IMG/VR virus record: IMGVR_UViG_3300008448_008004
Location: 29,829 to 93,828 of that record
Strand: one strand, 5' to 3'
DNA from: a virus
DNA: 64,000 nt
Position numbers and translations under genes: made by a program. Shown here in pieces: positions 6,001 to 54,250 of the stretch; position 1 is the first letter of the stretch; each line of letters starts with the position of its first letter. The notes beneath the pieces are model-generated. The model ran no database searches. It had not been told where the DNA came from and worked only from the letters and a program-made list of their open reading frames with translations.

Positions 6001-9000
6001 GAAACTCAAATTTTAACAACGGAAGATATTGTTACAGTAGTCGAAGAACATAACTATACTACAATAGAAGAAGAGGTAGATATAGATGATGATTATATTC
6101 CACCAACAGAAACACCACCATGTACTGTTTATCATTATGAAATTGGAGTTAATACTGATTTAAAATATACTGCATGTACGGGAAATGAAATTACTTTATC
6201 ATTGTCAGGAGGTAATAAAGGAGACATTTGTGTTCAAAGAGGAACTACACCTCAAATTATTACACCGGACCCGACAAATACGGTTACACCAACAGGTGAT
6301 GAATGTACTAGTACGACACCTAATCCAACTCCGACACCATCTCCAACACCAACACCAACACCAACGGAACCACCATTAAAAACAACGTTTCCCGATATTG
6401 GATTTTATTTTGATAATAATTTCCCCGATGGAACTAATAATAGAGAGGGGGTAACTGTAGATAAGGACTTTAAACATTGGTATGATTTATATATTGCTTC
6501 AGAAAACCAATACGTAAATTTAGGTAAAAGTGGAAGTTATTCGGCAGCATTAAACAAAATTGTTATTTATGGAGACCCCACATATAAAGATTATACTAAT
6601 TATGTAACAAACCAATTACCAAATGATGCTAAAATTAAATACCTAGATAGTTTTGTTGACACTAGAAAAGACAAAATATCAGAATTTTTTGGGTATATTA
6701 AAAAAGAATTTGAAGAAGCAAAAAAATTCATTGAAAAAATTGGACCTCTATTAGACGCTGGTGACACAATTTCATTTGATTTAGTTGCAAGTGCTTCGGC
6801 GGTTAATGATAACGCTTATAATATTAATTTATCTAAGAGAAGATATGACTCCGTTAAAAAATGGATTTATGCTCAAACTTCACCAAATGGAACTACAATG
6901 GAAAAATATGTCCAACAAGGTAAATTAAAAATCAAAGAATCTACAGTTGGTGAGGACACAAGTCTTGTCGATGAACCTTATAAATTCATTAAATGTAGTA
7001 AAGATTTTCAAGACAGACAAAAAGACGGAACTGTTTCTGTTAACGCTATGGCTTGTAGAAGAACAAAAATTTCTAACATAGAAAGAACCAAAAACGTTTC
7101 TCAAAATGAAAACCCAACAAATACTGAGTCAAGTAACGTAGTAACAAATAATGGTGACCCATCACAAACAAACCAACAATTGGCTGGTCAAGATTTTATT
7201 ATTACAGGTCCTGCAGGTCAAGAAAGTACAGGACAAAGTATAACACAACCTAACTCATCTTCACAATCATTTGTTTCACAATCACCAGAATCGCAACCAT
7301 ATACCAATAGTATTAATACAAGACCACAAGATGTCCAAACACAAACTTTTGAAAAAAGAAAAGATTTAACAAAAAGATTAGCAAGAAAACTTTTAACTGA
7401 GTGTAACTATTTTGAATATATTCAACAAAATGCCCCGATGATATACGATGGAATAAAATCTAAAATAAAATATTTCCAACCGGCATTTCACTCAATAACT
7501 CCTGAAGGGCTTAATTCTAGATTAGTTTTCTTACAACAATGTATGAGGCCTGGTGATACCATCCCTACAATTTCTGAATCAAATGGGGGTCAAGTTAAAC
7601 TACTTTACAATGACGTATCAAATAGTGCGTTTGGGGCTCCACCAATCTGCGTATTAAGAATTGGTGATTTCTTTCACACTAAAATAGTAATAGATGGTTT
7701 AACCTTAAAATATGATGAAGTACCATTTGATTTAAATCCTGAAGGAATTGGCGTCCAACCAATGATTGCGGATGTTACGGTTTCTTTTTCTTTTATTGGT
7801 GGACATGGATTGGCGGAACCTGTCGCTAAATTACAAAATGCATTAAGTTTTAACTATTATGGTAATACTGAAATGTATGACGAAAGAGCCGAATCCACGT
7901 CTCAATTAGATTTAAGTCAATATGATGCACAAATAATATCACAAATAAAAGATGAGTTAAATGTCGTTGACACATCAGCCACAAGACCTACGGTAAATGA
8001 TGGTGGAGTAACCATTGGTGTTACTAAAACTAACACTGTTGATTTAGTAACTTCAGCAACAACCGGAACTATCACATATAAAGACATTATGTCAAAGTTA
8101 GTGGACTCTACTAAATCATATGTAGAAAAAACAACATCTACTTTAGAAAAAATTAATCAAGAATATTTAATTGGGGGTCTTCAAATATTCACTAAGGATA
8201 GAAAATATACAGACGGGTTTTTCAATAGTTTAGGTGGTGATTTATCAAACACGGCTAACATATTTGGTTATGCTAGTACAATACAAGATAAATTAAACGA
8301 TTTAGCAACTAAGACTAAAGAAGATATAGATAACGACTTGTGTCCTTTATTACCTACAGTATATAATCAAAATTTGACCGACATACAAATTAAAAAAATT
8401 AAAAAACAATTAAAAGATAATATTGATACGAGAAAGAACGAAATGACAAATGCGTTAGAGAATTACTCTAATGAAATTTCAACGAATGAATTAGATTTAA
8501 TTAGTTTAATTGATAAAATTAGTTTTGTTTCTAATGGACATGACGGGTTTATAAAGAAAACCTTCTCAACTGTTGTTTATAATCTTTCAGGAACAACAAA
8601 GGTTACCCAACCAACATTACCTAATGTTGTGGACACACTACAAGAATTGGTTTTAGATTCATATTTAGTAAAAGATGATATGAATACATATTATCAAAAA
8701 CTTTCTGAGTTCTCTTTAATTCCTACAGGTGATGATGTTTATAGTAGTAATTATACTCAGAACACTTATTTACCTGAAAACAAACCTGGAGACACTAGAT
8801 TTTTTATGTTATTTGGTAAACCTATTATTGATAACCCTGATAAATTTGTAGATGACTTAATTAACAAAGCAATACCAAACGCTAACCAACAGGACAAAGA
8901 TGATTGGTTTTTATATTTAATGAATAATGTGAAAAATCCAAATAAAGGATTGCAAAATGCTTATTTAGCTTCTATGGTTGAAGTTAATAATAAAATTGAA

Positions 9001-37095: not shown

Positions 37096-38004
37096 ATGGC
37101 ATTAGGAACATATGGTATTGTAAGACCTTCAGATGTATCACCAGCGGATGTTGATATCATATTACACTACACACCGAGTAGAGACGTAACGGATAATTTT
37201 CTTCTTAAAAAGTTAAATTCGCAAAGTATTTTAACACCATATTACCATAACGCTGATACTGGAGGTAATTCGGGTGTAGAAATTTTAGGAGGTTTATATA
37301 ATTTAAAATTACCTGCTAGTGAGTTTAACAAAAAAGGAATCTACACATTGTATATTAAACCTGCTGAAATAAGAACAACTATCACTGATTGTGGGGTATT
37401 ATCGGCACTTCCAAATGTAAAAGGTATTATTATTAATATTAATGATGTTCCATCACAATACAGAAATAAATTTACAAACCAAGGGTTAGTTGGGTTTAGA
37501 GTTGAATACCTAAATTTAGATGGGAGTAAAATACCAAATTTTTATAGAATAGTAACTTCATCATTTTTTTGTGAACCTATTACAAATGAACAAGTTAATT
37601 CATCACAAAAAACCATCAGATATCGTTACGTTGATGGCGGGAGTGACTTAGTATTTTGTACTTTATCACCATCCTCTTCACCAACAAACAAACCAACAGC
37701 AACACCTTTTATAGGTCAACCAAATCAAAAAATTATTGTATCTAATACTTTCTTTAATCCAATCACCATTGATATACAAATGGCTGATTACGATTTGGAT
37801 ACGATTGCAATAGCTCTTTACGGTAATCAAACTAAGAGTATGGAAGACGGTATTTACACATTATATGATAGTAATAACAACATCTATAAACAATACAACT
37901 TGTTTGAGGTTAGAGATAACTTTAATGAGTTGTTATACGAAGTTAGACAAGATAGGGGTGCTAATATAGACTTCAGTAAAAACTTCACAAATATTATTAC
38001 TTAA
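37096..38004 (+). CDS. Tail/baseplate protein, unassigned
   Basis: The 302-aa product starts M-A-L-G-T-Y-G-I-V-R-P-S-D-V-S-P-A-D-V-D and contains a short Ser/Pro/Thr-rich linker (S-P-S-S-S-P-T-N-K-P-T) near residue 197. The remainder is beta-rich and ends with a helix bearing F-N-E-L-L-Y-E-V-R-Q-D-R-G. Its stop codon overlaps the start of the next gene by one base, so it is probably a partner of the 1120-aa protein. The linker splits it into two domains, which would fit a fibre- or plug-attachment protein. No family is recognised. Confidence 0.6.
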   Translation: MALGTYGIVRPSDVSPADVDIILHYTPSRDVTDNFLLKKLNSQSILTPYYHNADTGGNSGVEILGGLYNLKLPASEFNKKGIYTLYIKPAEIRTTITDCGVLSALPNVKGIIININDVPSQYRNKFTNQGLVGFRVEYLNLDGSKIPNFYRIVTSSFFCEPITNEQVNSSQKTIRYRYVDGGSDLVFCTLSPSSSPTNKPTATPFIGQPNQKIIVSNTFFNPITIDIQMADYDLDTIAIALYGNQTKSMEDGIYTLYDSNNNIYKQYNLFEVRDNFNELLYEVRQDRGANIDFSKNFTNIIT

Positions 38005-41000
38005 TGGCTAATAAGATTTTCTTCCCACCTATTGGAACAAATACTTTTGCAGATAATCTTGTCGGAGTTCAGATTACTGATGCAGGTGGATTAACGCAAG
38101 GAAATTTCCAATTTACCTCAGCGATATACGAAAAGTCTAACAGAACTTTCGATACTGGGGTTTTTTCTGAACCATATACTTTAGATAATATAAATGTCAC
38201 TAATATTGATGAGGCAAGAAGAATAATTGAAAAAAACTTTAAAGTTTATCCAAACTATGATTTATCAGAAATAACAAGTTTTTCTCTTTATGGTTCATTA
38301 GCCAAAAGACTTTCAGCGTCGGCGATTAAAATAATTAATAATTTCCCTGCGGCTATTGAAATAATCGCTTTACACCAATCAGGATTATACTCCGGATTTA
38401 CTGCTTATAATATTGTTTATAATTCAGTTAATAACGAAACAACTTTTGATATGGATTCTGGATTATTTAGAAATCCATTTAGTATTGATTTTTCTGTTAA
38501 TGCTGAAAGAAACATCGCGGTCCAACCGTTTCCTGTTCACCCAATAAGGGCTTTGACTACTGAATATGAAAAGTATTCAATCTATTTTGAAGATTTAAAT
38601 AAAGAATATAATTTAACATTTTTTGAACCAACTCAAAGTATGAGTGGTGGTACGGTTACCGTTAGTGTTAGTGGTGATTTATTTAGTGGCGCAACTGCAA
38701 CAACAAAATCTTTAATTTTAAAACCAAACAATAGTAAAACTCAAGAAATATTTGGAGATGCCTTTGATGAGGTTGAAAAATTCTTACTTAATCAAAATAC
38801 CTTACCAAAGTATAAAGCCGTTTTTTCATATCCCGAATATGATGGCACAACAGGTAAATACACACTATATAATAAGAGTGTAACTTGGCCTATTAATAAA
38901 TTTTGGAACTTAGATATTACAAGTTCATTATTTAACAAATATTTGGATAATTTACAATTAGTTGCCGAAAGACTTGATGAATATAAAACAAATCTAATTA
39001 GTAGGTTTTTAATAACAGGTTCATTCAAAGAATTTGATACACAAGACCAAAAAATTGAAAAGGTTTTACAACTTTATGGTAGAAGTTTTGATGAAGTTAA
39101 AAAATTTATAGATAGTTTAGCATATATGAATTCGGTTAATTACCAAGTCGGTAATGATATACCATCGCAACTATTATTTAATTTGGCTCAAACTTTAGGG
39201 ATTAATCCTAATATTTCACCAATAACGAATGAGAATTTTTTAGATTCTGTTTTTAGTTCAAAATCTCAACAAATTTATGCAGGTCAAACTAATAGCCCGA
39301 CACCAACAGAATTAAATTATCAATATTATAGGAATTTAATTTTGAATTCTGCTTACATGTACAAAACTAAAGGGACAAGAAGGTCTATGGAGTATGTTAT
39401 GAGATTTATTGGTGCTCCTGAGGCTTTAATGGAATTTAACGAAATAGTTTATGTTGCGGATGCTAGAATTAATGTTAATAATTTCACCGAACAATATGCA
39501 ACAATATCAGGTGGAACAAAATTTGTAACGGCACCAGCTTTAGACCCTACGAACACCTTTAAAGTTCAGGGTGTAACATATACAGGTTATACGAGTAGTG
39601 GGTTTATAAGACGTATTACCACAACATTAGATGACTATGGAGTGGATAGTGATGGTTACCCTAAAAGCCCTGCACAAACAAGTGACAATTTTTTTCAAAA
39701 AGGTGCGGGATGGTTCGAACAAACACCAAAACATAGGTCAATAGAGATTGCTGATAACGAAAATTCATCACTTAGCGGTTCAAACCCTTATTTAATTACA
39801 AAAATTCAACCATTTAATTTTGGTCAGGAGTATATGGATAGTCTTAGAAAATTCCCTGACATGAATGTGGGTTATACTTTAAGACGTGTTTCGGACAACC
39901 AAAAATCATGGGTAGTAAGTGATGTAGGTGTAAGAAAAAATAATGATAACTTTAATGGTGTTGATTATTCAGTTGGTAATGACAAATTGGTAATCAATTC
40001 TAAGAATTTGGAACTTTATATGAACATGGGACAAGGTATTACATATGATATATGGGACATGTCTGTTAAGTATGATTACCCAATACCAAATTCAGGTTTA
40101 ACATCACCATACCCATACCCTGGAAATATTGATTGGACACACATTGACCCAAAACCAAAACAAAAAACTTTCTTTGAGTTCGCACAAAGTTTCTATAACA
40201 ATTTTATTAATGTAAGAAACAGACAAACAATTACTGATGGTAAAACAGGAGGTTATCCAACACTACAATCTGTTTTTTGGAATTATTTAAATTCAGAACA
40301 AACGGTAGGAATACCATCAAATAATTTCTCATACCAAAAAATGATTGATTATACTTTAGGTTTGGGTGATTATTGGCAAAGACTATTGGAACAAGTTGTT
40401 CCTGGTACATCTTTATGGTTGACAGGTCAAAAAATGGAAAACTCTATTTTCCATAGACAAAAATACGTTTGGAGAAGACAAAGAGGGTGTCAGATTATTC
40501 CTGTGGCTTGTATTCCATGTAAGTATATGGGACAACCATTTGCTTATGACTGTATTGACCAAACATTACAATGTAGTATTGATGGGACACCTTCTCAAAT
40601 ATTACAAACATTAGTTGCAAGTTTGTTGTCTCAAAGTGGGTTTACACAAAACATGTGCGATTTAAATAGTATTGTTTCTAACTGGTATGTTGATTGTAGA
40701 TTAGACTCTCAAATATTAGTTCAAGAACAATTTTATACAGGTTATGGTATAAACGATTACCCAACTCAAACTCAACTAATTAATGCTATTGATACTGAGT
40801 TAGTCGGTTTATATAATTATGGGTTAAATTACTACTTTGCGGGGAACACTTTAATAGTGAGTAATACATCTTGTTATGATAATTTCTCAACTAGTACATT
40901 ATATTTAAACATCGGTGTTGATATTGATATTAATTGTACACCACCGGCATCAACACCTACACCAACCCCAACACCAACCCCAACACCTACACCAACCCCA

Positions 41001-41366
41001 ACACCTGCGTACGCAACTGTTAACATGTACTTAGGGTCTCCGGTTTTACTCCCATTACCATTAACATTAATTTATAGGATAAATGGAGGTGCATGGATTA
41101 CAATACCAAATCAAGGAGTTGGTAATAAACCTTTGACTTTACAAAATTACCAAACTTATTCAACATCTAATTTAATTGGTGATGTGATAGATATTGGTGT
41201 TTTAAATTCAGGTGGGTTTAATATAAGATTTGGAACTGGAAATAATAGTGGTACATACACAGGTTACTGTGGAATTAGTTCATACTATACTTATACTGTA
41301 GTAAGCGGTGTAAATAGTATTTACATAAACATCCAAGACACTGGTAGTGGATACGTAATATGTTAA
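38004..41366 (+). CDS. Large baseplate/tail protein with gpI-like motif and PT-linked C-terminal domain
   Basis: The 1120-aa protein has a middle part (about 443-480) with R-N-L-I-L-N-S-A-Y-M-Y-K-T-K-G-T-R-R-S-M and Y-V-M-R-F-I-G-A-P-E. The 'Y-K-x-K-G-T-x-x-S-x-E ... G-x-P' pattern is the hallmark of P2 gpI-type tail proteins, which link baseplate wedge to fibre. The N-terminal 400 residues are mixed helical and beta. Residues about 860-980 are Cys-containing (C-I-P-C-K-Y). A PT linker (about 983-1001) leads to a 120-residue C-terminal beta domain, which looks like an exchangeable binding module. The gene starts within the stop codon of the preceding gene. I infer a wedge-to-fibre adaptor carrying its own tip domain. 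Confidence 0.6.
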   Translation: MANKIFFPPIGTNTFADNLVGVQITDAGGLTQGNFQFTSAIYEKSNRTFDTGVFSEPYTLDNINVTNIDEARRIIEKNFKVYPNYDLSEITSFSLYGSLAKRLSASAIKIINNFPAAIEIIALHQSGLYSGFTAYNIVYNSVNNETTFDMDSGLFRNPFSIDFSVNAERNIAVQPFPVHPIRALTTEYEKYSIYFEDLNKEYNLTFFEPTQSMSGGTVTVSVSGDLFSGATATTKSLILKPNNSKTQEIFGDAFDEVEKFLLNQNTLPKYKAVFSYPEYDGTTGKYTLYNKSVTWPINKFWNLDITSSLFNKYLDNLQLVAERLDEYKTNLISRFLITGSFKEFDTQDQKIEKVLQLYGRSFDEVKKFIDSLAYMNSVNYQVGNDIPSQLLFNLAQTLGINPNISPITNENFLDSVFSSKSQQIYAGQTNSPTPTELNYQYYRNLILNSAYMYKTKGTRRSMEYVMRFIGAPEALMEFNEIVYVADARINVNNFTEQYATISGGTKFVTAPALDPTNTFKVQGVTYTGYTSSGFIRRITTTLDDYGVDSDGYPKSPAQTSDNFFQKGAGWFEQTPKHRSIEIADNENSSLSGSNPYLITKIQPFNFGQEYMDSLRKFPDMNVGYTLRRVSDNQKSWVVSDVGVRKNNDNFNGVDYSVGNDKLVINSKNLELYMNMGQGITYDIWDMSVKYDYPIPNSGLTSPYPYPGNIDWTHIDPKPKQKTFFEFAQSFYNNFINVRNRQTITDGKTGGYPTLQSVFWNYLNSEQTVGIPSNNFSYQKMIDYTLGLGDYWQRLLEQVVPGTSLWLTGQKMENSIFHRQKYVWRRQRGCQIIPVACIPCKYMGQPFAYDCIDQTLQCSIDGTPSQILQTLVASLLSQSGFTQNMCDLNSIVSNWYVDCRLDSQILVQEQFYTGYGINDYPTQTQLINAIDTELVGLYNYGLNYYFAGNTLIVSNTSCYDNFSTSTLYLNIGVDIDINCTPPASTPTPTPTPTPTPTPTPTPAYATVNMYLGSPVLLPLPLTLIYRINGGAWITIPNQGVGNKPLTLQNYQTYSTSNLIGDVIDIGVLNSGGFNIRFGTGNNSGTYTGYCGISSYYTYTVVSGVNSIYINIQDTGSGYVIC
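40950..41006 (+). repeat. PT-repeat linker tract
   Basis: Alternating CCAACA/CCTACA/CCAACC hexamers encode a Thr-Pro run of about 18 residues that separates the C-terminal domain of the 1120-aa protein from its body. It closely resembles the tracts at 48.4-49.0 kb. Confidence 0.9.
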
Positions 41367-44268: not shown

Positions 44269-46566
44269 ATGCCAACTTATAATAGATTAACCGACAGGTC
44301 CTTAGCCACAGGAGTAACTCTTAGTGATTTAATTCACATAGTAATAACAGGTGATACCTCACAAAACGCCGCTGGCTCTTCATACAAAGCAACAATTCAA
44401 CAATTAGCAAACGCAATTACAGGAGCAACAGGTAGTGGTTCATCCGGTACAAGCGGGTCAAACGGAACCTCAGGTTCAAGTGGGAGTAGTGGTTCTTCAG
44501 GTTCAAGTGGGAGTAGTGGTTCTTCAGGTACTAATGGCACAAGTGGTACTAGTGGAGGTGGAAGTGGTGAATATCTTCCTTTATCAGGAGGTACTGTAAC
44601 AGGAAACACATTTTTTGGAATATTATCAGGTATTACTTTAGACCAAGGAAACGCCAGGATTGGTATTGGAACTACCTCACCATCAAACACTTTGGAGTTG
44701 TATAATGGTGCATCAGTTTTGAATTATAGAAACTCTGTTGGAGGTGTTTTGGATATTTCAGGTTCAACCAACTTGCCAAGAATGTCTGCAACAATTTCTC
44801 CATCGGGAGCCAACCCTGATGCATCTGTGGGGTTTGGTATGAGGGCTTGGACAGATGTTACATATCCGGGATACGGAGCAGTCGGAGATGGACATTTGTA
44901 TGCATCCAATGATGCAAATGGTTTGAATATAATAAATAGACAAGGAAGTTCCACACAAGATTATGTCAGATTTTATGCAGGTCAAGATGCTAATGGAACA
45001 ACACCTGATGTTCACATACAAGGTAGTGGAACAACAAGAGGTTTTGTTGGATTTGGTACAATAAATCCTACGGAAAAAGTTGATGTTATAGGTAGACTTA
45101 AAACTGAAAACTTTCAAATGACTTCAGGGGCCACCGCAGGATATGTTTTAACATCAGATGCAAGTGGTTATGCAAGTTGGTCCCCTATAACTGGTGTCAC
45201 AGGAACATCGGGAACAAATGGTACTGATGGTTCTAGTGGTAGTTCAGGTTTATCAGGAACTAATGGTACAAGTGGTAGTTCAGGTTCATCAGGTATTGAT
45301 GGAACATCGGGAACAAATGGTACTAGTGGTACAAATGGTACATCTGGTAGTAGTGGGACAAGCGGTTCTTCAGGGTCGAGTGGTATGGATGGTATTTTTA
45401 GTGGTGGAACAATTTCAGCAACTACAACATTTTTAAGTGGGATTACTGCAAATACAATTTCAACAAACACAATCGGAGCTTCTGCAAATTGCGTCACTGA
45501 TTTGTATGTAACGAACATACATTCATGTTCACCATTATATATTAATCCATTTAATGAAGGAAACGTAATATTTGGTCAGAGTAATCAAATGGTACTTGAC
45601 TTAACAAACAAATATGTAGGGTTTAACAAAGTGCCGAGTTTTGCATTTGATTTTGCCTCCACAAATGGAACTTTTGCATTCAAACCATCCGTTTTTAACA
45701 GTGCGATGCAAATTTCAGGCACTAGTACACAATTTACATCCAAAGTTTTTGTTGCGGGTAATACATCATTAAGTATTGGTACTTACGGGGAACAATACCC
45801 AACTGGTGGGGGTTTTGTCTCAGGAGATACCTTTATAACTAATAGTGTAAATAACAATAGTTTACAAATTATTACACTATCAGGAACAACAGGTACAAAA
45901 GATGTTAAATTTAAGGTTGGAAGTGCCGCAACCAATAGTTCAGATTTATTTATTAAAGGTTCGGGTAGTACAAGAGGTTATGTTGGTATTGGTACAGAAA
46001 GTCCATTAGCTCTTTTACATGTGAGTGGAAATACTATCATAAGTTCAGGTTTAAGTGCAACGACATTTTCGGCAACAACAGTAACATCACCAACAATATC
46101 CTCAACAACTATTTCTGCTACAACAATAGTTTTAAGTGGTACTAATATAACATCATCGTGGACATCATTCACACCATCTTGGTCATCTAATGGTGGAACA
46201 CAACCAACAATAGGTAATGGTTCTATTACAGGAGCATACCAAGTTATTGGTAAAACTTGTTTTTATAGAGGTAAATTATTATTTGGAACGACAACATCAG
46301 GAGGAACTGGCGCTTGGGAAATCTCATTACCTTTTGTTGCGGCATCTGCGGAAGGAGTTCAATTACCTGTTTCAATTTTGGACCAAGGTATTGATTGGTA
46401 TCAAGGATTAATGAATGGGGCTTACGGAGGTTTTACAACTAAAAGTTCAATACTCGCCCCATCGACAGCATCCATAGGTAAAAGCTCAGGTTTGGATGCG
46501 ACTTTACCATTCGCTTGGGGGGATGGGGATTATTTTGTATGGAATGGTTCATATGAGATTGCTTAA
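44269..46566 (+). CDS. Tail fibre protein with collagen-like Gly-Ser-Thr tracts
   Basis: The 765-aa protein has an N-terminal attachment part (R-L-T-D-R-S-L-A-T-G-V-T), then a Gly-X-Y collagen-like tract (about 53-101) built from G-S-S, G-T-S and G-S-N triplets. The motif Y-L-P-L-S-G-G-T-V-T-G, common in phage fibres, follows. A shaft region contains repeated 'G-I-G-T-x-x-P' beads (G-I-G-T-T-S-P, G-F-G-T-I-N-P, G-I-G-T-E-S-P) of the kind found in trimeric fibres. A second collagen-like tract lies at about 311-375. The last 130 residues (from S-W-T-S-F-T-P-S-W) form a distinct C-terminal beta domain, the likely receptor-binding tip. The triplets have almost no proline. The glycosyltransferase gene follows 46 bases downstream. 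Confidence 0.8.
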   Translation: MPTYNRLTDRSLATGVTLSDLIHIVITGDTSQNAAGSSYKATIQQLANAITGATGSGSSGTSGSNGTSGSSGSSGSSGSSGSSGSSGTNGTSGTSGGGSGEYLPLSGGTVTGNTFFGILSGITLDQGNARIGIGTTSPSNTLELYNGASVLNYRNSVGGVLDISGSTNLPRMSATISPSGANPDASVGFGMRAWTDVTYPGYGAVGDGHLYASNDANGLNIINRQGSSTQDYVRFYAGQDANGTTPDVHIQGSGTTRGFVGFGTINPTEKVDVIGRLKTENFQMTSGATAGYVLTSDASGYASWSPITGVTGTSGTNGTDGSSGSSGLSGTNGTSGSSGSSGIDGTSGTNGTSGTNGTSGSSGTSGSSGSSGMDGIFSGGTISATTTFLSGITANTISTNTIGASANCVTDLYVTNIHSCSPLYINPFNEGNVIFGQSNQMVLDLTNKYVGFNKVPSFAFDFASTNGTFAFKPSVFNSAMQISGTSTQFTSKVFVAGNTSLSIGTYGEQYPTGGGFVSGDTFITNSVNNNSLQIITLSGTTGTKDVKFKVGSAATNSSDLFIKGSGSTRGYVGIGTESPLALLHVSGNTIISSGLSATTFSATTVTSPTISSTTISATTIVLSGTNITSSWTSFTPSWSSNGGTQPTIGNGSITGAYQVIGKTCFYRGKLLFGTTTSGGTGAWEISLPFVAASAEGVQLPVSILDQGIDWYQGLMNGAYGGFTTKSSILAPSTASIGKSSGLDATLPFAWGDGDYFVWNGSYEIA
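44430..44571 (+). repeat. Collagen-like repeat tract 1
   Basis: Triplet-coded Gly-X-Y repeat. It includes a perfect 27-base tandem duplication at 44471-44497 and 44498-44524, a sign of recent slippage or unequal recombination. Confidence 0.85.
45200..45392 (+). repeat. Collagen-like repeat tract 2
   Basis: A second Gly-Ser/Thr-rich triplet tract in the same fibre gene, with many short shared words (ACAAATGGTAC, GGTAGTTCAGG) also seen in or close to tract 1. Confidence 0.8.
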
Positions 46567-46590
46567 TATTTATTTACGTGATAGATTACA

Positions 46591-46612
46591 TATCTTCTAA
46601 CAAAAGAAGATA
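46591..46612 (+). promoter_or_regulatory. Perfect hairpin abutting the glycosyltransferase start codon
   Basis: TATCTTCT (46591-46598) and AGAAGATA (46605-46612) form a perfect 8-bp stem with a six-base AACAAA loop. The stem ends exactly at the ATG at 46613 and no T run follows, so it is not a terminator. It would hold the initiation region in a structure and may act as a translational operator. Confidence 0.6.
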
Positions 46613-47812
46613 ATGAAAATATTTGTACAAATCGCGTCTTATCGAGACCCCGAACTTTTACCAACTATTAGAGATTGTATTAATACTGCAAAATACCCAG
46701 AAAATTTAACATTTGGTATTTGTTGGCAACGTGATGAAACGGAGTCAATGGAAGAATTTACAAATGACCCAAGATTTAAAGTTTTAGATTATCATTGGTC
46801 AAAGAGTAAAGGACTTTGTTGGGCTCGTTCTGAAATTCAAAAACTATGGGAAGGTGAAGAATATACCATGCAATTAGATTCACATCACAGGTTCTTACAA
46901 GATTGGGATGTTGAGTTAATTAATATGATGAATCAAACAGGTTCAGAAAAACCAATCATCACAGCATATGCTGGCATGTATAGACCATCTGATAATAAGT
47001 TACTAAATGTCGAACCATACAAAATGGTTGCTTCAAACTTTACGCCAGGTGGAACTATTCTTTTTAGACCCCACACTATTGAAAATTGGCAGAACTTAGA
47101 TAAACCAATTCCCGCAAGATTTGTTAGCGGACATTTCTTTTTTACTATAGGAAAACACTGTGAAGAGTATAAATATGACCCAAATATATACTTTGCTGGT
47201 GATGAAATTAGTTTATCAATTCGTTCATATACATTAGGTTATGATTTATTTCACCCACATAAAACTGTTGTGTGGCATGAATACACAAGAGAAGGTAGAA
47301 CAAAACATTGGACAGATTTCAACGACGAAAATAAAAATAAAGGTGTAGTTGAAAAACCTTGGTGGATAATGGATAATGAATCTAAAAGAAGATTAAGACA
47401 TATGTTACAAGAGGAAGATAACAATATTGACCTTGGTGAGTATGGGTTAGGTGATGTAAGGTCACATAAAGATTATGAACTTTACGCTGGAATTAATTTT
47501 AAAGAAAGAGTTTTACATGAAAACACAATCAAGGGAATTAATCCACCTGTTAATGATGAAACTGAATGGTATTTAAAAACTAAAAATACATACGACTTAG
47601 AACTTGAAATCCCTTATGTTGAAAATTTTAGTTTCATTTATATTGGTATTGAAGATGAGTTAGGTAATGTAATTCATAGACAAGATTTAACATCGTATGT
47701 TTCAAAAATAAATGTAAAAATGGAAAGTTTTAGTAAACCTTATAAATGGGTTTATTGGGTTAATGACATAAACGGAGAATGGGGAAATAGACAAGATATT
47801 TTATTTTTATAA
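46613..47812 (+). CDS. Glycosyltransferase of the GlcNAc-transferase (Skp1 Gnt1-like) family
   Basis: The 399-aa protein starts M-K-I-F-V-Q-I-A-S-Y-R-D-P-E-L, the typical opening of this family (S-Y-R-D-x-E-L ... T-I ... A ... P), followed by F-G-I-C-W-Q-R-D. The segment M-Q-L-D-S-H-H-R-F (Asp89) corresponds to the metal- and nucleotide-sugar-binding motif, and P-A-R-F-V-S-G-H-F-F-F and Y-F-A-G-D-E-I-S-L follow. Known members add GlcNAc to proteins such as Skp1 in Dictyostelium; phage targets are not established. A C-terminal extension beyond about 290 has no clear match. It stands alone among fibre genes rich in Ser, Thr and Pro, so fibre modification is a reasonable inference; host-surface or DNA modification are alternatives. 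Its start codon abuts a perfect hairpin. Confidence 0.8.
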   Translation: MKIFVQIASYRDPELLPTIRDCINTAKYPENLTFGICWQRDETESMEEFTNDPRFKVLDYHWSKSKGLCWARSEIQKLWEGEEYTMQLDSHHRFLQDWDVELINMMNQTGSEKPIITAYAGMYRPSDNKLLNVEPYKMVASNFTPGGTILFRPHTIENWQNLDKPIPARFVSGHFFFTIGKHCEEYKYDPNIYFAGDEISLSIRSYTLGYDLFHPHKTVVWHEYTREGRTKHWTDFNDENKNKGVVEKPWWIMDNESKRRLRHMLQEEDNNIDLGEYGLGDVRSHKDYELYAGINFKERVLHENTIKGINPPVNDETEWYLKTKNTYDLELEIPYVENFSFIYIGIEDELGNVIHRQDLTSYVSKINVKMESFSKPYKWVYWVNDINGEWGNRQDILFL

Positions 47813-47841
47813 AACATCATATAATAAAATAGATTTTTGAT

Positions 47842-47849
47842 TATTTATA
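47842..47849 (+). promoter_or_regulatory. TATTTATA element before the PT-rich fibre gene
   Basis: An exact TATTTATA lies 20 bases before the ATG at 47870, in the 57-base gap after the glycosyltransferase gene. This spacing is compatible with a promoter core and a short leader. Confidence 0.45.
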
Positions 47850-47869
47850 TAATAAAGTTTCACACATAA

Positions 47870-49474
47870 ATGGCTGATGTAATTTTTAGTAGTTGTTGTT
47901 ATAACCTTGTATATAGTGCTACAAGTTTTCCCGTTAGTGCTTCAGTTAATGAGGTATACTCTATTGAAAATGACCCAAATATGCCAAATGGTTGTTATAC
48001 CGTGGTCAGTGGAGTTACGGGCACATCTATAACATTTGGGATATCTGCAATAGGTACATTAGTAACCGGATGCACGCATCCATCATGTTTAGAATGTTGT
48101 TCAAGTACGTTATGTATTAGTGCACCAACAACTTTATATAGTGGATACGGAGGAACTTATATAATACAAGGAGGGTATAATTCTTACCCATATTGGACTG
48201 GAGGAACATCTAGCACTGGATATTTACATTATAACGGAACTTATTGGTGTTTAAGTAGTTCATTAGGTGGTTCTTGTATATTTTTTGGGTCCAATCCAAC
48301 TTTTTCAGTATGTCCTGATTTAGATGAAACGGTAATGACAACAGGTGCTTGTATTCCAACACCAACACCATATGACCCTTGTTCAGTTTTAGATTTTGAT
48401 GTGTTATTGGAGTGTAATATCCCAACCCCAACACCTACACCGACACCTACTCCAACCCCAACACCTACACCGACACCTACTCCAACTGCGAATATATGTA
48501 GTGCTTTTACTGCAAATATCACATATCAGACAGCAACACCAACTCCTACTCCAACACCGACACCAACCCCAACCCCTACACCAACTGTTACACCATCTGC
48601 AGATACCGTGACGTTTATTGTAGATAATGGAAACTTTGTTTGTGCGACGGTTAAAGAATTGGTTGATTGTTATGATGGAACGAAATATTATGTTGCAGGA
48701 CCATTATTATTAACAGGTTCAACAGCAACAACTGTTACAACAACAGGAACAACAATCTATGGTGTAATAAATAATGACATTAGATGTGCTACATATACAC
48801 AAAATGTTAACGGAAGTGCAAACGCATCAATTCAATACATAATTTCAGCATATACAGGATATTGTTCGGTTTCATGTGTTACTCCAACACCAACACCTAC
48901 ACCGACGCCAACACCTACACCGACTCCTACACCGACTCCTACACCTACACCTACATTTGCACCTGGAACTGTGTTTGTATTTACATCTTGTACTTCTAAT
49001 AGTATGATAACACAAACGGCTTATCCACCAACAAATTTAACTATTGGTAATGTGTTAAAAACATTGTCAGGTGATTGTTATAGTTATGTTGGAAATTATG
49101 TTGGATATGTTGCTCCGTCAGGTTATGTGGTTGCAAACGTAAATGAGTTTACAGCAACTACTGCCACGACATACACTGATTGCGTAGATTGTTTAACTGT
49201 GACTGCTGCTACTACAACTTATAACACATGGAGAGGAAGTTTTGGATTCGCCTTGAACTGTCCTGTTTGTCAAATAACTGACTTTGGTAAGAAAAATACT
49301 TTCTATACCTCTAACTTAATAAGTGAAATTGCTACGGATGTTTATGTCTTTAGTGATTCATCATTAACTAAACCAATAACAGAAGATTACTTACAATACG
49401 GAAACTTTATCTATAAAGTTGATGTAAGTGGTAAATTAACACAATTCTGTACTGTAAACGGAAACTGTAAATAA
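47870..49474 (+). CDS. Modular fibre protein with several PT linkers
   Basis: The 534-aa protein is a string of small Cys-containing beta domains joined by Pro-Thr linkers. The N-terminal domain (about 1-160) is Cys-rich (S-S-C-C-Y-N-L-V-Y, C-L-E-C-C-S-S-T-L-C). Short or long PT tracts lie near 162-167, 184-206, 223-244 and 338-363. Between the last two is a domain with F-I-V-D-N-G-N-F-V-C-A-T-V-K. The C-terminal domain (about 364-534) contains N-C-P-V-C-Q-I-T-D-F. It resembles a rod-and-bead surface protein; no enzymatic motif is seen. The gene lies just after the glycosyltransferase and overlaps the next gene by one base. The PT tracts are possible glycosylation sites. Confidence 0.65.
   Translation: MADVIFSSCCYNLVYSATSFPVSASVNEVYSIENDPNMPNGCYTVVSGVTGTSITFGISAIGTLVTGCTHPSCLECCSSTLCISAPTTLYSGYGGTYIIQGGYNSYPYWTGGTSSTGYLHYNGTYWCLSSSLGGSCIFFGSNPTFSVCPDLDETVMTTGACIPTPTPYDPCSVLDFDVLLECNIPTPTPTPTPTPTPTPTPTPTPTANICSAFTANITYQTATPTPTPTPTPTPTPTPTVTPSADTVTFIVDNGNFVCATVKELVDCYDGTKYYVAGPLLLTGSTATTVTTTGTTIYGVINNDIRCATYTQNVNGSANASIQYIISAYTGYCSVSCVTPTPTPTPTPTPTPTPTPTPTPTPTFAPGTVFVFTSCTSNSMITQTAYPPTNLTIGNVLKTLSGDCYSYVGNYVGYVAPSGYVVANVNEFTATTATTYTDCVDCLTVTAATTTYNTWRGSFGFALNCPVCQITDFGKKNTFYTSNLISEIATDVYVFSDSSLTKPITEDYLQYGNFIYKVDVSGKLTQFCTVNGNCK
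48422..48481 (+). repeat. Perfect 30-base tandem duplication in a PT tract
   Basis: Two identical 30-base units (48422-48451 and 48452-48481), each made of CCAACC/CCAACA/CCTACA/CCGACA/CCTACT hexamers, encode Thr-Pro repeats. Perfect identity at synonymous positions indicates recent duplication. Confidence 0.9.
48535..48590 (+). repeat. PT-repeat linker tract
   Basis: A second hexamer-based Thr-Pro tract in the 534-aa fibre protein, with the same word set as the tract at 48422 but a different order. Confidence 0.85.
48881..48957 (+). repeat. PT-repeat linker tract
   Basis: The longest Thr-Pro tract of this gene, made of CCAACA/CCTACA/CCGACG/CCGACT hexamers. It precedes the C-terminal domain. 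Confidence 0.9.
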
Positions 49475-50412
49475 TGGCTATAAATGTAACCGTAAGTTCA
49501 ATAGTATCAGGAACATCACCATATAATGTGTGGGTTTGTGATAGTTGTGGTGTTGGGGGAACTTCTCAATATATAGATACGTTTTCTACAAGTGCATATA
49601 CATTTACATTACCTACAATATATGAAAGTTATACAACATATTATGTAAAAGTTATTGATGCCAATGGATGTAGTTATTGTGTTTCACCTGATTTAGTTGG
49701 ATGTAATATTTTTGTTGGTTATTGGGATGGAAACAGTTATTACAAATATAATGTTATTAGTGATACCTCAGAAGGACCATTATCATTAGTAATTACCCCA
49801 TCAGGAGACAACAGTCCGATGGCAAATACCGAAGATAAAATGTGGTTCTTATCATCCACTGGAGTTACAGAATTAGATATAACAATAGACCCTTTCTCAA
49901 ACACATATAATAGAGAAATTGCAATTAATTTAGATGATAATAAAGAAATTTTTGCTATTGATAACAATAACTTATTAGTCTTGGCGACAAATACGGGAAC
50001 ATCAACTACTCATATTTATAATGCTGTAATTACAGGGACAACTGCATCCACAACAAATCTTCTTGAAATTGTTGGTTCTCTATCGGGTAGTCCTGGTATC
50101 AGAGACATGAAACTTTCAACAGAAAATAAAGTAATTGTTATTGGTACAAATACAGGTTCAACTTATTTACAACAATATGATTACGTTTCAGGAGGAACTT
50201 TAGAAGTTGAAATAAATTTATCAGGAATAACTAATGTTGGTTCATTTGTTGAATCAAACGACCAATTTTATATATTGAATAATTCAAATGAAGTCTATCA
50301 AATTAATTTGACGGCACCATATTTAATAACGTTTGAAAAAACATCAACAACACCTATTGGTTTTGGAAGAACATCCCAAAGATATGGTTGTATAACACAA
50401 AAATTCACATAA
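49474..50412 (+). CDS. Fibre protein: 'Y-V-C-D'-type domain fused to propeller-like repeats
   Basis: The first 80 residues of this 312-aa protein (S-I-V-S-G-T-S-P-Y-N-V-W-V-C-D-S-C, then Y-V-K-V-I-D-A-N-G-C) are a third copy of the domain seen alone at 43669 and 43957. The rest has repeated beta strands of the form K-M-W-F-L-S-S-T-G-V-T-E-L, N-N-L-L-V-L-A-T-N-T-G, K-V-I-V-I-G-T-N-T-G-S and D-Q-F-Y-I-L-N-N-S-N-E-V, about 45 residues apart, which suggests a small beta-propeller. Propellers on fibres often bind glycans or proteins, but no binding residues can be named. It starts in the stop codon of the previous gene. Confidence 0.6.
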   Translation: MAINVTVSSIVSGTSPYNVWVCDSCGVGGTSQYIDTFSTSAYTFTLPTIYESYTTYYVKVIDANGCSYCVSPDLVGCNIFVGYWDGNSYYKYNVISDTSEGPLSLVITPSGDNSPMANTEDKMWFLSSTGVTELDITIDPFSNTYNREIAINLDDNKEIFAIDNNNLLVLATNTGTSTTHIYNAVITGTTASTTNLLEIVGSLSGSPGIRDMKLSTENKVIVIGTNTGSTYLQQYDYVSGGTLEVEINLSGITNVGSFVESNDQFYILNNSNEVYQINLTAPYLITFEKTSTTPIGFGRTSQRYGCITQKFT

Positions 50413-50413
50413 A

Positions 50414-52012
50414 ATGGGTCAATTAAGTGGTAATAGTTGTAATATAATAACTCTCTTCCCTTTGGGTGTTGAGTGTAATGTTATTAATAGTTCCACACCT
50501 CAAACAACTAATGGTTTAATTTCTCTTTATATAACAGGAGGGACTGCACCTTATAATGTGATATGGAATGGAGGTCAACAAGGTAGTTTATTAACAAATC
50601 TTGGACCTGGTGAGTATACCGCAACGGTAGTTGATTACTATGGTGACTTTACAGGAACAACAACTTGTACTGTCGATTATGATAGTTTCTATTTGGAGAA
50701 ATTTGAAGATTGTTCTAATTCAGGTAGTTTTGTTTATTATTTGGCAGACTTATATAATCCGTTTAGTGCATCTTCAGTATACAGATTGACAACTCAAACA
50801 GGATGTTGGACAAGTAGTGGAACTACATTACATACAGGTCAAACTTATTATGACTTTTTTGCCGTTTCATCTGCTGGACCATATACGGGTTGCAGCCAAT
50901 GTTTACCTCCGGTTACACCGCCACCTGTAATACCGAGTGGATTATGTTTAACACAAACTGTAAACTCAGTACCGACTTTAATTAATTTCTATTCTGCGGG
51001 AACAATGAATGGTATGATGTCGTGGACAAGTGTAACACCAAGTTACAAAATATACTATAGTTCAGGAACAACAAAATGGTTATTAAGTGGATGGACGAAC
51101 GGTTCCGTTTTCAAACAATCACCAACATCACCACCAACAGGAAATTGGACAGTAACAGGTCCTAGTGCATTTACAACATCAATAACGGTGTTGTCGGGTA
51201 ATTGTTCTTCCGCACTATTGAAAGTTAAAGTAAATTCAACAAATCCAATATGTGCAAATCAAACAAATGGGTCTATGGTTTTAACTGGTAGTGGAGGTGT
51301 CCCTTCATATACTTACTCGTTAAATGGGGTAAATTACCAAGCATCAAACATATTTTCAAGTCTAGGTGTAGGGACATACACTGTTTATATCAAAGATTCT
51401 GTAGGTAATGTTTACTCAACAACTACCACACTGACACCTCAACAAAGTGTACAAAATTATGTGGTAAGTTTGAATTTAAATGAACAAACACCACAGTCTT
51501 ATGGTAATGCAACAAGTAAGACAACAAATTGGTCTATAGGGGTTTCACCGGCACTTCCAACAGGAGTTACAGTCAATATGACACTAACATTCAATATAAA
51601 CTATACTGCAAGTACTAATACCGCTTCTGTGGTTCCTACAATAACAAATTCAATAACGGCTATAACATCACCAAATACAGTTATAACACCAATTAGTTCA
51701 AGTTCAGTGACAGGAACAAGTAGTGCAAGACCAAGTTGTTCAGGTGGATTTATTAACACAAGTGCATCATCTCAAACTTATACTGTTCAATTAACAAATA
51801 ACGGAGTTGCGTCAGGAACAATAGTTCAATATGTGAATACACCATGTGTTGCCACTGGTTGTCCATTAAATGGATTTATAGTTGATAGTGTTTCAATACA
51901 GAATATTTCTATTACACCATCTTTATGTAGAAGTATTAATAAAAACATTACACCACAAAAAACACAACTTAATAAAACAGGAACAATTTGTCCAGCATCA
52001 CCATCATTATGA
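50414..52012 (+). CDS. Fibre/adhesin-like protein with SprB-type repeats
   Basis: The 532-aa product has an N-terminal SprB-like unit (about 35-75: L-Y-I-T-G-G-T-A-P-Y-N-V-I-W-N-G-G and G-P-G-E-Y-T-A-T-V-V-D) and a second one near 288-340 (G-G-V-P-S-Y-T-Y-S-L-N-G and G-V-G-T-Y-T-V-Y-I-K-D). A Pro-rich linker (C-L-P-P-V-T-P-P-P-V-I-P) lies between them near 170. The last 170 residues are Thr/Ser-rich beta strands, ending in a short basic tail (N-K-N-I-T-P-Q-K-T-Q). It follows the propeller-like gene by one base. It is the second adhesin-like protein of the cluster and a likely receptor-binding candidate. Confidence 0.6.
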   Translation: MGQLSGNSCNIITLFPLGVECNVINSSTPQTTNGLISLYITGGTAPYNVIWNGGQQGSLLTNLGPGEYTATVVDYYGDFTGTTTCTVDYDSFYLEKFEDCSNSGSFVYYLADLYNPFSASSVYRLTTQTGCWTSSGTTLHTGQTYYDFFAVSSAGPYTGCSQCLPPVTPPPVIPSGLCLTQTVNSVPTLINFYSAGTMNGMMSWTSVTPSYKIYYSSGTTKWLLSGWTNGSVFKQSPTSPPTGNWTVTGPSAFTTSITVLSGNCSSALLKVKVNSTNPICANQTNGSMVLTGSGGVPSYTYSLNGVNYQASNIFSSLGVGTYTVYIKDSVGNVYSTTTTLTPQQSVQNYVVSLNLNEQTPQSYGNATSKTTNWSIGVSPALPTGVTVNMTLTFNINYTASTNTASVVPTITNSITAITSPNTVITPISSSSVTGTSSARPSCSGGFINTSASSQTYTVQLTNNGVASGTIVQYVNTPCVATGCPLNGFIVDSVSIQNISITPSLCRSINKNITPQKTQLNKTGTICPASPSL

Positions 52013-52042: not shown

Positions 52043-54250
52043 ATGTCATACATAATTAAAGATACCGCAGCGTTAATTAACACACTTGTTACCGATGCAG
52101 GAAGAAAAAAGATATCACAAGGTAAATTTGATATATCATACTTCCAAGTTGGTGATAGTGAAGCTTGTTATAATTGTATAAACAATTTAGACCCGGTTAA
52201 TTTAAATGTGTTAATGCCACAATATAACACACAAAATTTAGCGCCAGTCCCACAAAAAAATAGAATGGAAATTAAATATCCAATCTATTTGGACTCAACA
52301 TCGGGTAGTACATATGGAGTCCCATTTGATGCTTCATATATTGATAGTGTTTATAATAGTGCGGCACCAAGAGGATTTTTTAATCCAAGTACAGGAACAC
52401 CTTACACTTATAGTGCTTACACAACTTCAGCATATACAATCAATCCTAACTTTATTGCACAAAATAGTGGTATTACTTCAGGAACGACTTTAACAATATC
52501 GGGGACATCATTAGCTCCTTCAGTATCAGGAACAGTAACACCTGGTATGTTTATGACATTATTTACAAATGGTCAGATTTCCCCCGTTCAAAATGCGGGA
52601 CCTCTATTCACTTATTTAGTAGTTGGTGTCACTGGTGATACTTCTACGGGAGGAACAGTTACAATACAAGTAGATAGACAATTACCTAACTTAGGAACAA
52701 TGGGACTTACAGGAACATCCCAAACTTTATTTTATCCAAGTGGTATGACTGTAATATATGATACAACAACACCTGAACCATATTGGGAAAATGATGTAAT
52801 TAATTTTGAAACAAACTGTGATGTTTCTGCAAGAAACGTAAATATTTGGAATATGAATATTCCGTGGACTGAATCGCCGGCAGGGGTATTCAGTAATACA
52901 AACCAAGATTATAATTTTTATAAATCAACAGGATATACCGGTTCAAAAGAATATTTTGGATATAACTCAAACACCGGTCAAGTAGACACCGACTCAACAT
53001 ATTATTATAATTCATTTGCTGATAAAATAATTCTTTCACCATCAGACCAAAAATCAATCGCGATTGTTCACTATACAAACCAAGCTATCGATAATTTTTA
53101 TGGAGAAAAATTTGCACAAGAAGAATACGACCCAAATAACCCTGGCGGGACAGGTCAAGCAAGAAATTTAAGAATTAGTATTCCTTGGTTAATGTGGCAT
53201 AAAAATTCAGGAGCAACTGTAGGTCAAGAATTTTATACAGACCCATCAGGATTTACAAGTCTTAATTTATTTGAACCACATTATATTGAATCTAAAAAAG
53301 ACCCTAATTTTAATGACCCCGGTTTAAGATATTATCACTTATGGGATACTAACCCTAATACTAATGGTTATCCTAATAGAGTAGGTAAAGTATTCCCTGA
53401 CTACAAAATGATTATATTTGATGATGATGAAATTGTTGCGGCACTTAATTACAAATCAAATAGGTCTTGGACATTACCAGCACCTAAATTAGGATTGGTA
53501 ACTCCAAATACATTTAGTGGGGTTTTAGGTGGAACAAGTGGTTTATTAACGGGAAGTTCTGAAACTTTATTTTTAACGTATATCTTTGAAAATACAGGAT
53601 TTACAAATTCTTTACATTGTAATTATTACACAACAATTACAGGAAATGACCAAAGTCTATTACCAGGTGCTTCAGACATTATTATAAGATTCGGTAATGA
53701 GTTTCCATTCTTAAGAAACACATATACATCACCAAGTGGATTTACTGCAAATCGTATAAAGTTAATTGCACAAAAAGTTTCAAGTGGGACCACAAGACCT
53801 ACAGCATCCGCTTGGAAAGAAATCGATGTAACATCACAAATTTCAGCAACAACGATTGGTGGTTACATGACACAATCAGGAATGACGGGAACAACATTAC
53901 AATTAACTAAAAATATGTATGATACAGCATCAACATATAGGTTAGATAATTATATCAATTTACCTGCACTTAATGATTCAGGATTAACTTTGAATTTTGG
54001 TGGAGAATACTTCTTTTTTGGTAATATTCAAACAGATATTCAAGCAACAATATACGTAATGAACTTTTTATGTAATTTAGGTCAAACACAATTCTTTGAT
54101 TCATCTAACCCGACTTGGACTGGGTCCAACCCATATGTAACCGAAGTTGGACTTTACAATGCAGATAAAGAACTTATGGTTATATCGAAGATACAATCAC
54201 CTGAAAAACGACAAGGTATTCAACAGTATCCGATTAAGTTAGATTTTTAA
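52043..54250 (+). CDS. Tail fibre/collar-like structural protein
   Basis: The 735-aa protein opens D-T-A-A-L-I-N-T-L-V-T-D-A-G-R-K-K-I-S-Q-G and then S-Y-F-Q-V-G-D-S-E-A. This 'T-x-A-G-R-x-x-I-x-x-G ... F-x-x-G-D' pattern is like the N-terminal domain of phage tail-collar and long-fibre proteins. The middle part has W-L-M-W-H-K-N-S-G and Y-K-M-I-I-F-D-D-D-E-I-V-A-A-L-N-Y, and the end has E-V-G-L-Y-N-A-D-K-E-L-M-V-I-S-K-I, a segment also typical of collar-fibre folds. No PT or collagen tract is present, in contrast to its neighbours. It is the last gene of the structural block. Attachment of fibres to the baseplate is a reasonable inference. Confidence 0.55.
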   Translation: MSYIIKDTAALINTLVTDAGRKKISQGKFDISYFQVGDSEACYNCINNLDPVNLNVLMPQYNTQNLAPVPQKNRMEIKYPIYLDSTSGSTYGVPFDASYIDSVYNSAAPRGFFNPSTGTPYTYSAYTTSAYTINPNFIAQNSGITSGTTLTISGTSLAPSVSGTVTPGMFMTLFTNGQISPVQNAGPLFTYLVVGVTGDTSTGGTVTIQVDRQLPNLGTMGLTGTSQTLFYPSGMTVIYDTTTPEPYWENDVINFETNCDVSARNVNIWNMNIPWTESPAGVFSNTNQDYNFYKSTGYTGSKEYFGYNSNTGQVDTDSTYYYNSFADKIILSPSDQKSIAIVHYTNQAIDNFYGEKFAQEEYDPNNPGGTGQARNLRISIPWLMWHKNSGATVGQEFYTDPSGFTSLNLFEPHYIESKKDPNFNDPGLRYYHLWDTNPNTNGYPNRVGKVFPDYKMIIFDDDEIVAALNYKSNRSWTLPAPKLGLVTPNTFSGVLGGTSGLLTGSSETLFLTYIFENTGFTNSLHCNYYTTITGNDQSLLPGASDIIIRFGNEFPFLRNTYTSPSGFTANRIKLIAQKVSSGTTRPTASAWKEIDVTSQISATTIGGYMTQSGMTGTTLQLTKNMYDTASTYRLDNYINLPALNDSGLTLNFGGEYFFFGNIQTDIQATIYVMNFLCNLGQTQFFDSSNPTWTGSNPYVTEVGLYNADKELMVISKIQSPEKRQGIQQYPIKLDF

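What the first reader, a model, noticed from the sequence alone, without database searches (positions are those of the whole stretch)
44269..49474. Protein glycosyltransferase embedded among PT- and Ser/Thr-rich fibre genes
The gene at 46613 encodes a member of the family whose best known enzyme puts GlcNAc on hydroxyproline of Skp1. It is flanked by a fibre with long Gly-Ser-Thr collagen-like tracts (44269) and by a fibre with several Pro-Thr linkers (47870); similar linkers occur at 6319 and 40950. Such extended Thr/Pro sequences are typical acceptor sites for sugar chains. A phage that glycosylates its own fibre linkers could stiffen them, protect them from proteases or mask them from receptors. 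I know of no established case with this enzyme family.
Basis: partly seen in the sequence, partly recalled or inferred. Interest (0 to 1): 0.75.

Follow-up and report, generated by a model that had tools for sequence, protein, structure and literature searches.

The report
Phage mucin-type protein glycosylation cassette
A large aquatic phage carries an enzyme that looks like the ones that attach sugars to mucin proteins, in an exchangeable slot of sugar-handling genes directly in front of a probable tail-fibre protein with long Pro-Thr linkers, which suggests that the phage sugar-coats its own fibres and swaps the type of coat by recombination.

Summary
ORF 46613-47812 is a PF11397 (GlcNAc, CAZy GT60-type) glycosyltransferase with an intact DxH...E...His catalytic set. 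Its predicted structure (pLDDT 95) matches mucin-type polypeptide GalNAc-transferases in every one of the 50 best PDB hits shown. It precedes ORF 47870, whose three Pro-Thr tracts use mixed codons, are predicted disordered and keep their positions in relatives. In 37 of 37 non-redundant relatives with enough upstream sequence, sugar-transfer or sugar-modifying genes lie just upstream of the 47870 homologue; other intervals of the block matched none of these gene families. Occupants are swapped: near-identical phages (neighbour 98.7% identical) carry GTs only 52% identical. Relatives without this GT there carry others, including one over the curated cut-off for protein O-heptosyltransferases (TibC/Aah). 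Outside this lineage Pro-Thr proteins are 4-fold enriched beside the GT; collagen tracts are not. Best explanation: the enzyme starts O-glycans on Thr of the phage's own linkers. Virion glycosylation as such is known (mycobacteriophages); the enzyme family, linker partner and exchangeable locus are the new variant. No chemistry is shown.

The parts
46613..47812 (+). PF11397 / GT60-type glycosyltransferase, 399 aa; GT-A domain about 1-300 plus C-terminal beta domain about 325-399
46877..46885 (+). DxH motif D89-S90-H91 (D89 and H91 invariant in 63 homologues)
   Evidence: DxH is the GT27/GT60 replacement of DxD (PMC7185993)
47204..47206 (+). E198, invariant acidic residue (xED-like motif)
47276..47278 (+). 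H222, invariant C-terminal metal-binding His candidate
47870..49474 (+). Cys-rich beta-domain protein with three Pro-Thr linkers; proposed acceptor and constant neighbour of the cassette
48422..48487 (+). Pro-Thr tract 1 (22 residues), inside a stretch predicted disordered (residues 174-256)
48536..48583 (+). Pro-Thr tract 2 (16 residues), inside the same disordered stretch
48881..48952 (+). Pro-Thr tract 3 (24 residues), predicted disordered (residues 338-359)
44269..46566 (+). Fibre with collagen-like Gly-Ser/Thr-X tracts; variable neighbour; in one sister pair the tip of the gene in this place was exchanged together with the GT cassette
49474..50412 (+). Conserved downstream gene of the fibre block (anchor)
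50414..52012 (+). SprB-repeat protein (anchor)
52043..54250 (+). Conserved putative tail/baseplate protein used to sample the lineage
40953..41006 (+). Further Pro-Thr tract, in ORF 38004-41366; possible additional acceptor
6325..6366 (+). Further Pro-Thr(Ser) tract, in ORF 3070-9189; possible additional acceptor

Best explanation
The gene encodes a soluble, metal-dependent polypeptide O-glycosyltransferase of the GT60 type. In the infected cell it uses a nucleotide sugar of the host (probably UDP-GlcNAc) to put a first sugar on Thr of the extended Pro-Thr linkers of the phage's own tail/fibre-block protein encoded next door (47870), possibly also on the linkers of ORFs 38004 and 3070. In most relatives further genes of the same cassette probably extend or cap the sugar; the window copy has none between the GT and 47870. 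The locus is a glycan-type slot: cassettes are exchanged by recombination between 47870 and the tip of the upstream fibre, so related phages would carry differently decorated linkers. Shown: enzyme family, predicted fold, invariant catalytic residues, purifying selection, tract disorder and conservation, slot occupancy, exchange. Inferred: donor sugar, acceptor, and any benefit (stiffening, protease resistance, masking).
For: PF11397 1e-67. D89, H91, E198 and H222 invariant in 63 phage and bacterial homologues. AlphaFold2 model pLDDT 94.9; the 50 best PDB matches shown are all mucin-type polypeptide GalNAc-transferases, E down to 4.7e-12. GT60 and GT27 share polypeptide Ser/Thr O-glycosylation and DxH (PMC7185993); GT60 enzymes of T. 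cruzi act on Thr of Thr/Pro-rich mucins and on KPPTTTTTTTTKPP (PMC3769586). 37 of 37 non-redundant lineage loci have sugar-transfer or sugar-modifying genes within 3.5 kb upstream of 47870; the other anchor intervals contain no member of the same gene families. Families named in the slot besides PF11397: HtrL_YibB, DUF3431, GT29, GT34, GT9, GT-D, GT4, GT25, sulfotransferase, hexapeptide transferase, FkbM. A sister-phage slot enzyme matches the protein O-heptosyltransferase model TIGR04414 with 307 bits, cut-off 200; that family acts on adhesin proteins (PMC4358343). Exchange: L152/L157 neighbour 98.7% identical, GT 51.8%, right breakpoint 46 bp before the 47870 homologue. Pro-Thr proteins enriched beside the GT outside the lineage (10/73 against 2.4, P about 0.0002). 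dN/dS about 0.12.
Against: No biochemical or mass-spectrometry evidence. About 80% of GT loci outside the lineage have no Pro-Thr protein within three genes, and in XacN1-like jumbo phages and Jiulongibacter the GT sits with a carbamoyltransferase away from fibre genes, so Pro-Thr tracts cannot be its only acceptors. The GT also tends to sit beside long genes, so part of the enrichment could reflect fibre neighbourhoods. L144, L145 and L151 keep Pro-Thr tracts with a sialyltransferase-like gene instead of the GT. More distant relatives have the GT elsewhere in the genome. The slot reference set was collected from the slot itself, so the contrast with other intervals is partly circular.
Confidence: 0.58

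Rival explanations
1. The cassette modifies a host surface glycan (LPS core or exopolysaccharide) during infection, blocking superinfection or re-adsorption of progeny to debris; it sits beside the fibres because receptor binding and receptor change evolve together.
For: Some slot genes belong to families known from LPS core loci (GT9, GT25, HtrL_YibB). In L152/L157 the upstream fibre tip was exchanged together with the GT cassette. Jiulongibacter has the GT near UDP-glucose-dehydrogenase-like, carbamoyltransferase-like and FkbM-like genes.
Against: No flippase or lipid-phosphate sugar transferase was seen in the slots read. Fold and catalytic signature point to polypeptide acceptors, and an unrelated protein O-heptosyltransferase family occupies the same slot in sister phages. 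The constant neighbour is a Pro-Thr protein.
Confidence: 0.2
2. The enzyme glycosylates a different phage protein (the collagen-like fibre, the fibre tip, a baseplate or capsid protein), and the Pro-Thr tracts are plain spacers.
For: Fibre tip and GT exchanged as a unit in L152/L157. Pro-Thr tracts persist without this GT in L144, L145, L151. Many GT loci lack a Pro-Thr neighbour.
Against: Pro-Thr but not collagen tracts are enriched beside the GT outside the lineage. Known GT60/GT27 enzymes modify Ser/Thr of polypeptides, and the T. cruzi GT60 acts on Thr/Pro-rich mucins (PMC3769586, PMC7185993).
Confidence: 0.15
3. DNA hypermodification glycosyltransferase.
For: Many phage glycosyltransferases act on DNA (PMC12619734). 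The XacN1 GT lies several genes from a DNA polymerase. Thymidylate-synthase-fold genes (PF00303) exist in 7 of 10 records, among them relatives with the GT, although that family is mostly ordinary thymidylate synthase.
Against: In the lineage the GT sits in the tail block with companion sugar genes. All 50 listed structural matches are polypeptide transferases. PF00303 was not found in the own record, which is a fragment.
Confidence: 0.03
4. Host-protein glycosylation for host take-over, an effector-like use of a polypeptide transferase.
For: The family acts on polypeptides; PHROG files it under moron/host takeover.
Against: Position in the tail block, exchange at the boundary of a virion-type gene and the Pro-Thr partner.
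Confidence: 0.04

Closest known systems
CAZy GT60 / Pfam PF11397: Skp1 GnT1, Dictyostelium Gnt2, Trypanosoma cruzi TcOGNT
   Same: Pfam family match, DxH and C-terminal His; family members use UDP-GlcNAc on polypeptide Thr or hydroxyproline (PMC6939170, PMC9472816, PMC3769586)
   Different: Phage-encoded and in a tail block; own C-terminal beta domain; no Skp1 or Golgi setting; donor and acceptor untested
GT27 polypeptide GalNAc-transferases (mucin-type O-glycosylation)
   Same: Closest solved fold, 50 of 50 best matches shown; DxH/His catalytic signature
   Different: 12-16% identity; not in the same sequence family (phmmer and profile search of the PDB found no GT27 relative)
Mycobacteriophage virion glycosylation (Freeman et al. 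2023, cited in PMC12619734 and PMC11652166)
   Same: Phage-encoded glycosyltransferases that modify virion proteins
   Different: Capsid and tail-tube acceptors in mycobacteriophages; here a GT60-type enzyme, Pro-Thr linkers, exchangeable cassettes and large aquatic phages
Bacterial autotransporter heptosyltransferases TibC/Aah (TIGR04414; PMC4358343)
   Same: Protein O-glycosyltransferases that modify adhesins; a homologue over the curated cut-off occupies the same slot in a sister phage (L206)
   Different: Different enzyme family from the window GT; phage-borne

Membership tests
PF11397 GlcNAc / CAZy GT60 | Profile match above the curated cut-off | tested here: met
   229.5 bits against cut-off 21. 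CAZy itself could not be searched.
PF11397 GlcNAc / CAZy GT60 | DxH instead of DxD, plus C-terminal His | tested here: met
   D89, H91, H222 invariant in 63 sequences; definition from PMC7185993
PF11397 GlcNAc / CAZy GT60 | Retaining UDP-GlcNAc transfer to polypeptide | not testable with these tools
   needs an enzyme assay
Skp1 hydroxyproline pathway | Prolyl hydroxylase that makes the acceptor | tested here: inconclusive
   PF13640 not found in G000, G001, G002, G003, G008; records may be fragments, and other hydroxylase families or the host were not tested
GT27 mucin-type transferase | Fold | tested here: met
   50 of 50 top PDB hits shown, on a predicted model
GT27 mucin-type transferase | Sequence family membership | tested here: not met
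   no GT27 chain found by phmmer or profile search; Pfam assigns PF11397 only
Phage virion glycosylation system | Glycan on a virion protein that depends on the phage GT | not testable with these tools
   needs mass spectrometry of virions

The most novel reading that the evidence does not exclude
Large phages run mucin-like O-glycosylation of their own fibre linkers from a dedicated exchangeable glycan-type slot, where unrelated protein O-glycosyltransferases (GT60-type, TibC-like) and tailoring enzymes replace one another, sometimes together with the fibre tip; the same GT family also accompanies contractile type VI secretion loci in bacteria.
Probability: 0.45. Interest if true: 0.85.

Novelty: new variant of a known kind. 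Interest (0 to 1): 0.66.

Why it matters
If true, mucin-type O-glycosylation, best known from animals and protists, is a routine part of building large-phage fibres, and phages keep an exchangeable locus of coat sugars much as bacteria keep capsule loci. That would give a concrete reason for Pro-Thr linkers in environmental phage proteins, supply cytosolic polypeptide O-glycosyltransferases for glycoengineering, and make virion glycan type a heritable trait that can be tested.

Tried and rejected
Collagen-like fibre as the constant partner: rejected. Microsatellite origin of the Pro-Thr tracts: rejected, mixed codons. Loss of Pro-Thr tracts when the GT is lost: not seen; GT-less L144, L145, L151 keep them but carry a GT29-like gene. 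Correlation of tract length with GT presence: seen, but confounded by phylogeny, and counts of strict Pro-Thr repeats miss the longer Thr/Pro-rich linkers of distant relatives, so not used. Naming the 47870 fold: the BFVD search gave only uncharacterised phage proteins at significant E-values and the model is moderate. Sequence search of the PDB with the GT: no relatives. PF11397 in the literature held: one unrelated paper. Literature on Pro-Thr fibre linkers and on T6SS-linked glycosyltransferases: nothing relevant found. Identity of the lineage with the published moraphages (PMC12619734): plausible, not tested.
Full report
1. Observation. The coordinates and features are right. ORF 46613-47812 matches PF11397 at 1e-67 and PHROG 24687 at 2e-104. 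ORF 44269 has two collagen-like Gly-Ser/Thr-X tracts and ORF 47870 three Pro-Thr tracts of 22, 16 and 24 residues; further tracts lie at 6325-6366 and 40953-41006. The tracts use mixed Thr and Pro codons, so they are not slipped microsatellites. In 34 aligned sequences they stay at the same three positions, and the model of 47870 leaves residues 174-256 and 338-359 disordered between beta domains. The block is a T4-like baseplate/tail region (baseplate wedge and hub hits; tail-fibre hits for 44269). The window is two thirds of a 94-kb viral record; relatives with the same block reach about 290-320 kb.

2. The enzyme. In 63 phage and bacterial homologues D89, H91, E198 and H222 are invariant. 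The model has pLDDT 94.9, and each of the 50 PDB chains listed as best matches is a mucin-type polypeptide GalNAc-transferase. Published work notes that GT27 and GT60 share the DxH replacement and polypeptide Ser/Thr O-glycosylation (PMC7185993), that Gnt1 belongs to GT60 together with the T. cruzi polypeptide alpha-GlcNAc-transferase (PMC6939170), and that the latter modifies Thr in Thr/Pro-rich mucins and the peptide KPPTTTTTTTTKPP (PMC3769586). The gene is under purifying selection (dN/dS about 0.12). Hydroxyproline is unlikely as acceptor: PF13640 was not found in the own record or in four large relatives with the GT beside 47870; the records may be incomplete.

3. The slot. Scans gave 52, 80 and 72 viral loci with this GT family, partly overlapping, and 80 loci with the conserved gene 52043. 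Among 40 non-redundant lineage loci with a 47870 homologue, 37 have enough upstream sequence, and all 37 have sugar-transfer or sugar-modifying genes within 3.5 kb upstream; where both anchors were present the slot was occupied 22 of 22 times, and no other anchor interval held a member of the same gene families. The reference set was collected from the slot itself, so the contrast with other intervals is partly circular; the few non-slot genes scanned without bias were a DUF1573-like and an HNH protein, and extra genes in the 49474-50414 interval were mostly fibre relatives. Slot contents by Pfam: PF11397 followed by HtrL_YibB, or by DUF3431, unassigned genes (one with a weak PHROG glycosyltransferase match) and HtrL_YibB; GT29 on the opposite strand (L144), GT34 (L155), GT9 (L194), GT-D plus a PfkB kinase (L197), GT4/GT9 (L206), sulfotransferase (L209), hexapeptide and FkbM genes (L215); GT4/GT25 (L200), GT4 and methyltransferase (L213). 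The commonest second gene (265 aa, 4-bp overlap with the GT) has an acidic EDD stretch but no family match, so calling it a glycosyltransferase is inference. In other contexts the gene directly after the GT is a GT2 (L018, L036), GT32-type (L050) or GT11 (L053). The window copy has no gene between the GT and 47870.

4. A second protein-glycosylation family in the same slot. L206 encodes in the slot a protein whose C-terminal domain matches the autotransporter O-heptosyltransferase model TIGR04414 with 307 bits, above the curated cut-off of 200; L200 scores just below it (187 bits). L197 carries a heptose-phosphate-kinase-like protein (124 bits, below the cut-off of 345). TibC of that family modifies adhesin proteins (PMC4358343). 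Two unrelated families of protein O-glycosyltransferase in one slot favour a protein acceptor over LPS.

5. Exchange. L152 and L157 are 98.7% identical in the 47870 homologue and 97.7% in the 52043 homologue, but 51.8% in the GT, with unlike second genes. DNA identity of about 92-94% stops inside the upstream fibre's collagen-like tract and resumes 46 bp before the 47870 homologue; the fibre tip changed along with the GT. L170/L166 show a second exchange, starting inside the GT. The collagen-like repeat may therefore act as a recombination joint rather than as an acceptor (inference).

6. Outside the lineage. Of 73 non-redundant GT loci, 10 have a Pro-Thr protein immediately adjacent against 2.4 expected from other genes of the same loci (P about 0.0002); collagen tracts 0. 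The excess remains when null positions are restricted to genes beside a gene of at least 250 aa (10/61 against 2.9). In distant relatives that have the GT away from 47870 (G004, G005, G007), it follows Thr/Pro-rich fibre-like genes and heads a cassette with an HtrL_YibB-domain gene. Counter-examples are the XacN1-like jumbo phages, where the GT is followed by a carbamoyltransferase and lies away from fibre genes.

7. Bacteria. In Burkholderiales and a Neisseriaceae genome the GT sits in type VI secretion clusters, order TssF-TssG-TssA-fimbrial-adhesin-like gene-GT, with VgrG and TssM downstream in many. This parallels a contractile tail with an adhesin-like neighbour and was not found described in the papers held.

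8. Judgement. A protein acceptor of the phage itself is the best reading (about 0.7 to 0.75 for some virion protein, 0.58 for the Pro-Thr linkers of 47870 as stated). The main rival is modification of a host surface glycan that acts as receptor (0.2). Nothing here shows catalysis. Virion glycosylation is known in mycobacteriophages, so this is a new variant of a known kind rather than a new kind.

Noticed in passing
L225-L242 (Burkholderiales and Neisseriaceae genomes): PF11397 glycosyltransferase genes sit inside type VI secretion clusters, usually just after a fimbrial-adhesin-like gene and near TssA, VgrG and TssM.
   Followed up: partly
L144:5200-5787, L145:5222-5824, L151:5227-5817: A GT29 (sialyltransferase) family gene on the opposite strand replaces the PF11397 gene beside the Pro-Thr protein.
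   Followed up: partly
L206:1343-4453 and L200:1-3564: Phage proteins with GT4 and TibC/Aah-like O-heptosyltransferase domains; L206 is over the curated cut-off.
   Followed up: partly
L152:2032-2811 and L157:1954-2760: Fibre genes near-identical up to the end of a collagen-like repeat and unrelated after it; the repeat looks like the joint for tip exchange.
   Followed up: partly
L001, L002, L331, L332: A recurring pair PF11397 plus carbamoyltransferase, in L331 and L332 also with HtrL_YibB-like genes, in jumbo phages; Jiulongibacter (L224) has a similar pair.
   Followed up: partly
window 41375-43669 and 50414-52012: SprB-repeat proteins in the tail block, a repeat named for a Bacteroidota gliding adhesin, hinting at a Bacteroidota host.
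   Followed up: no
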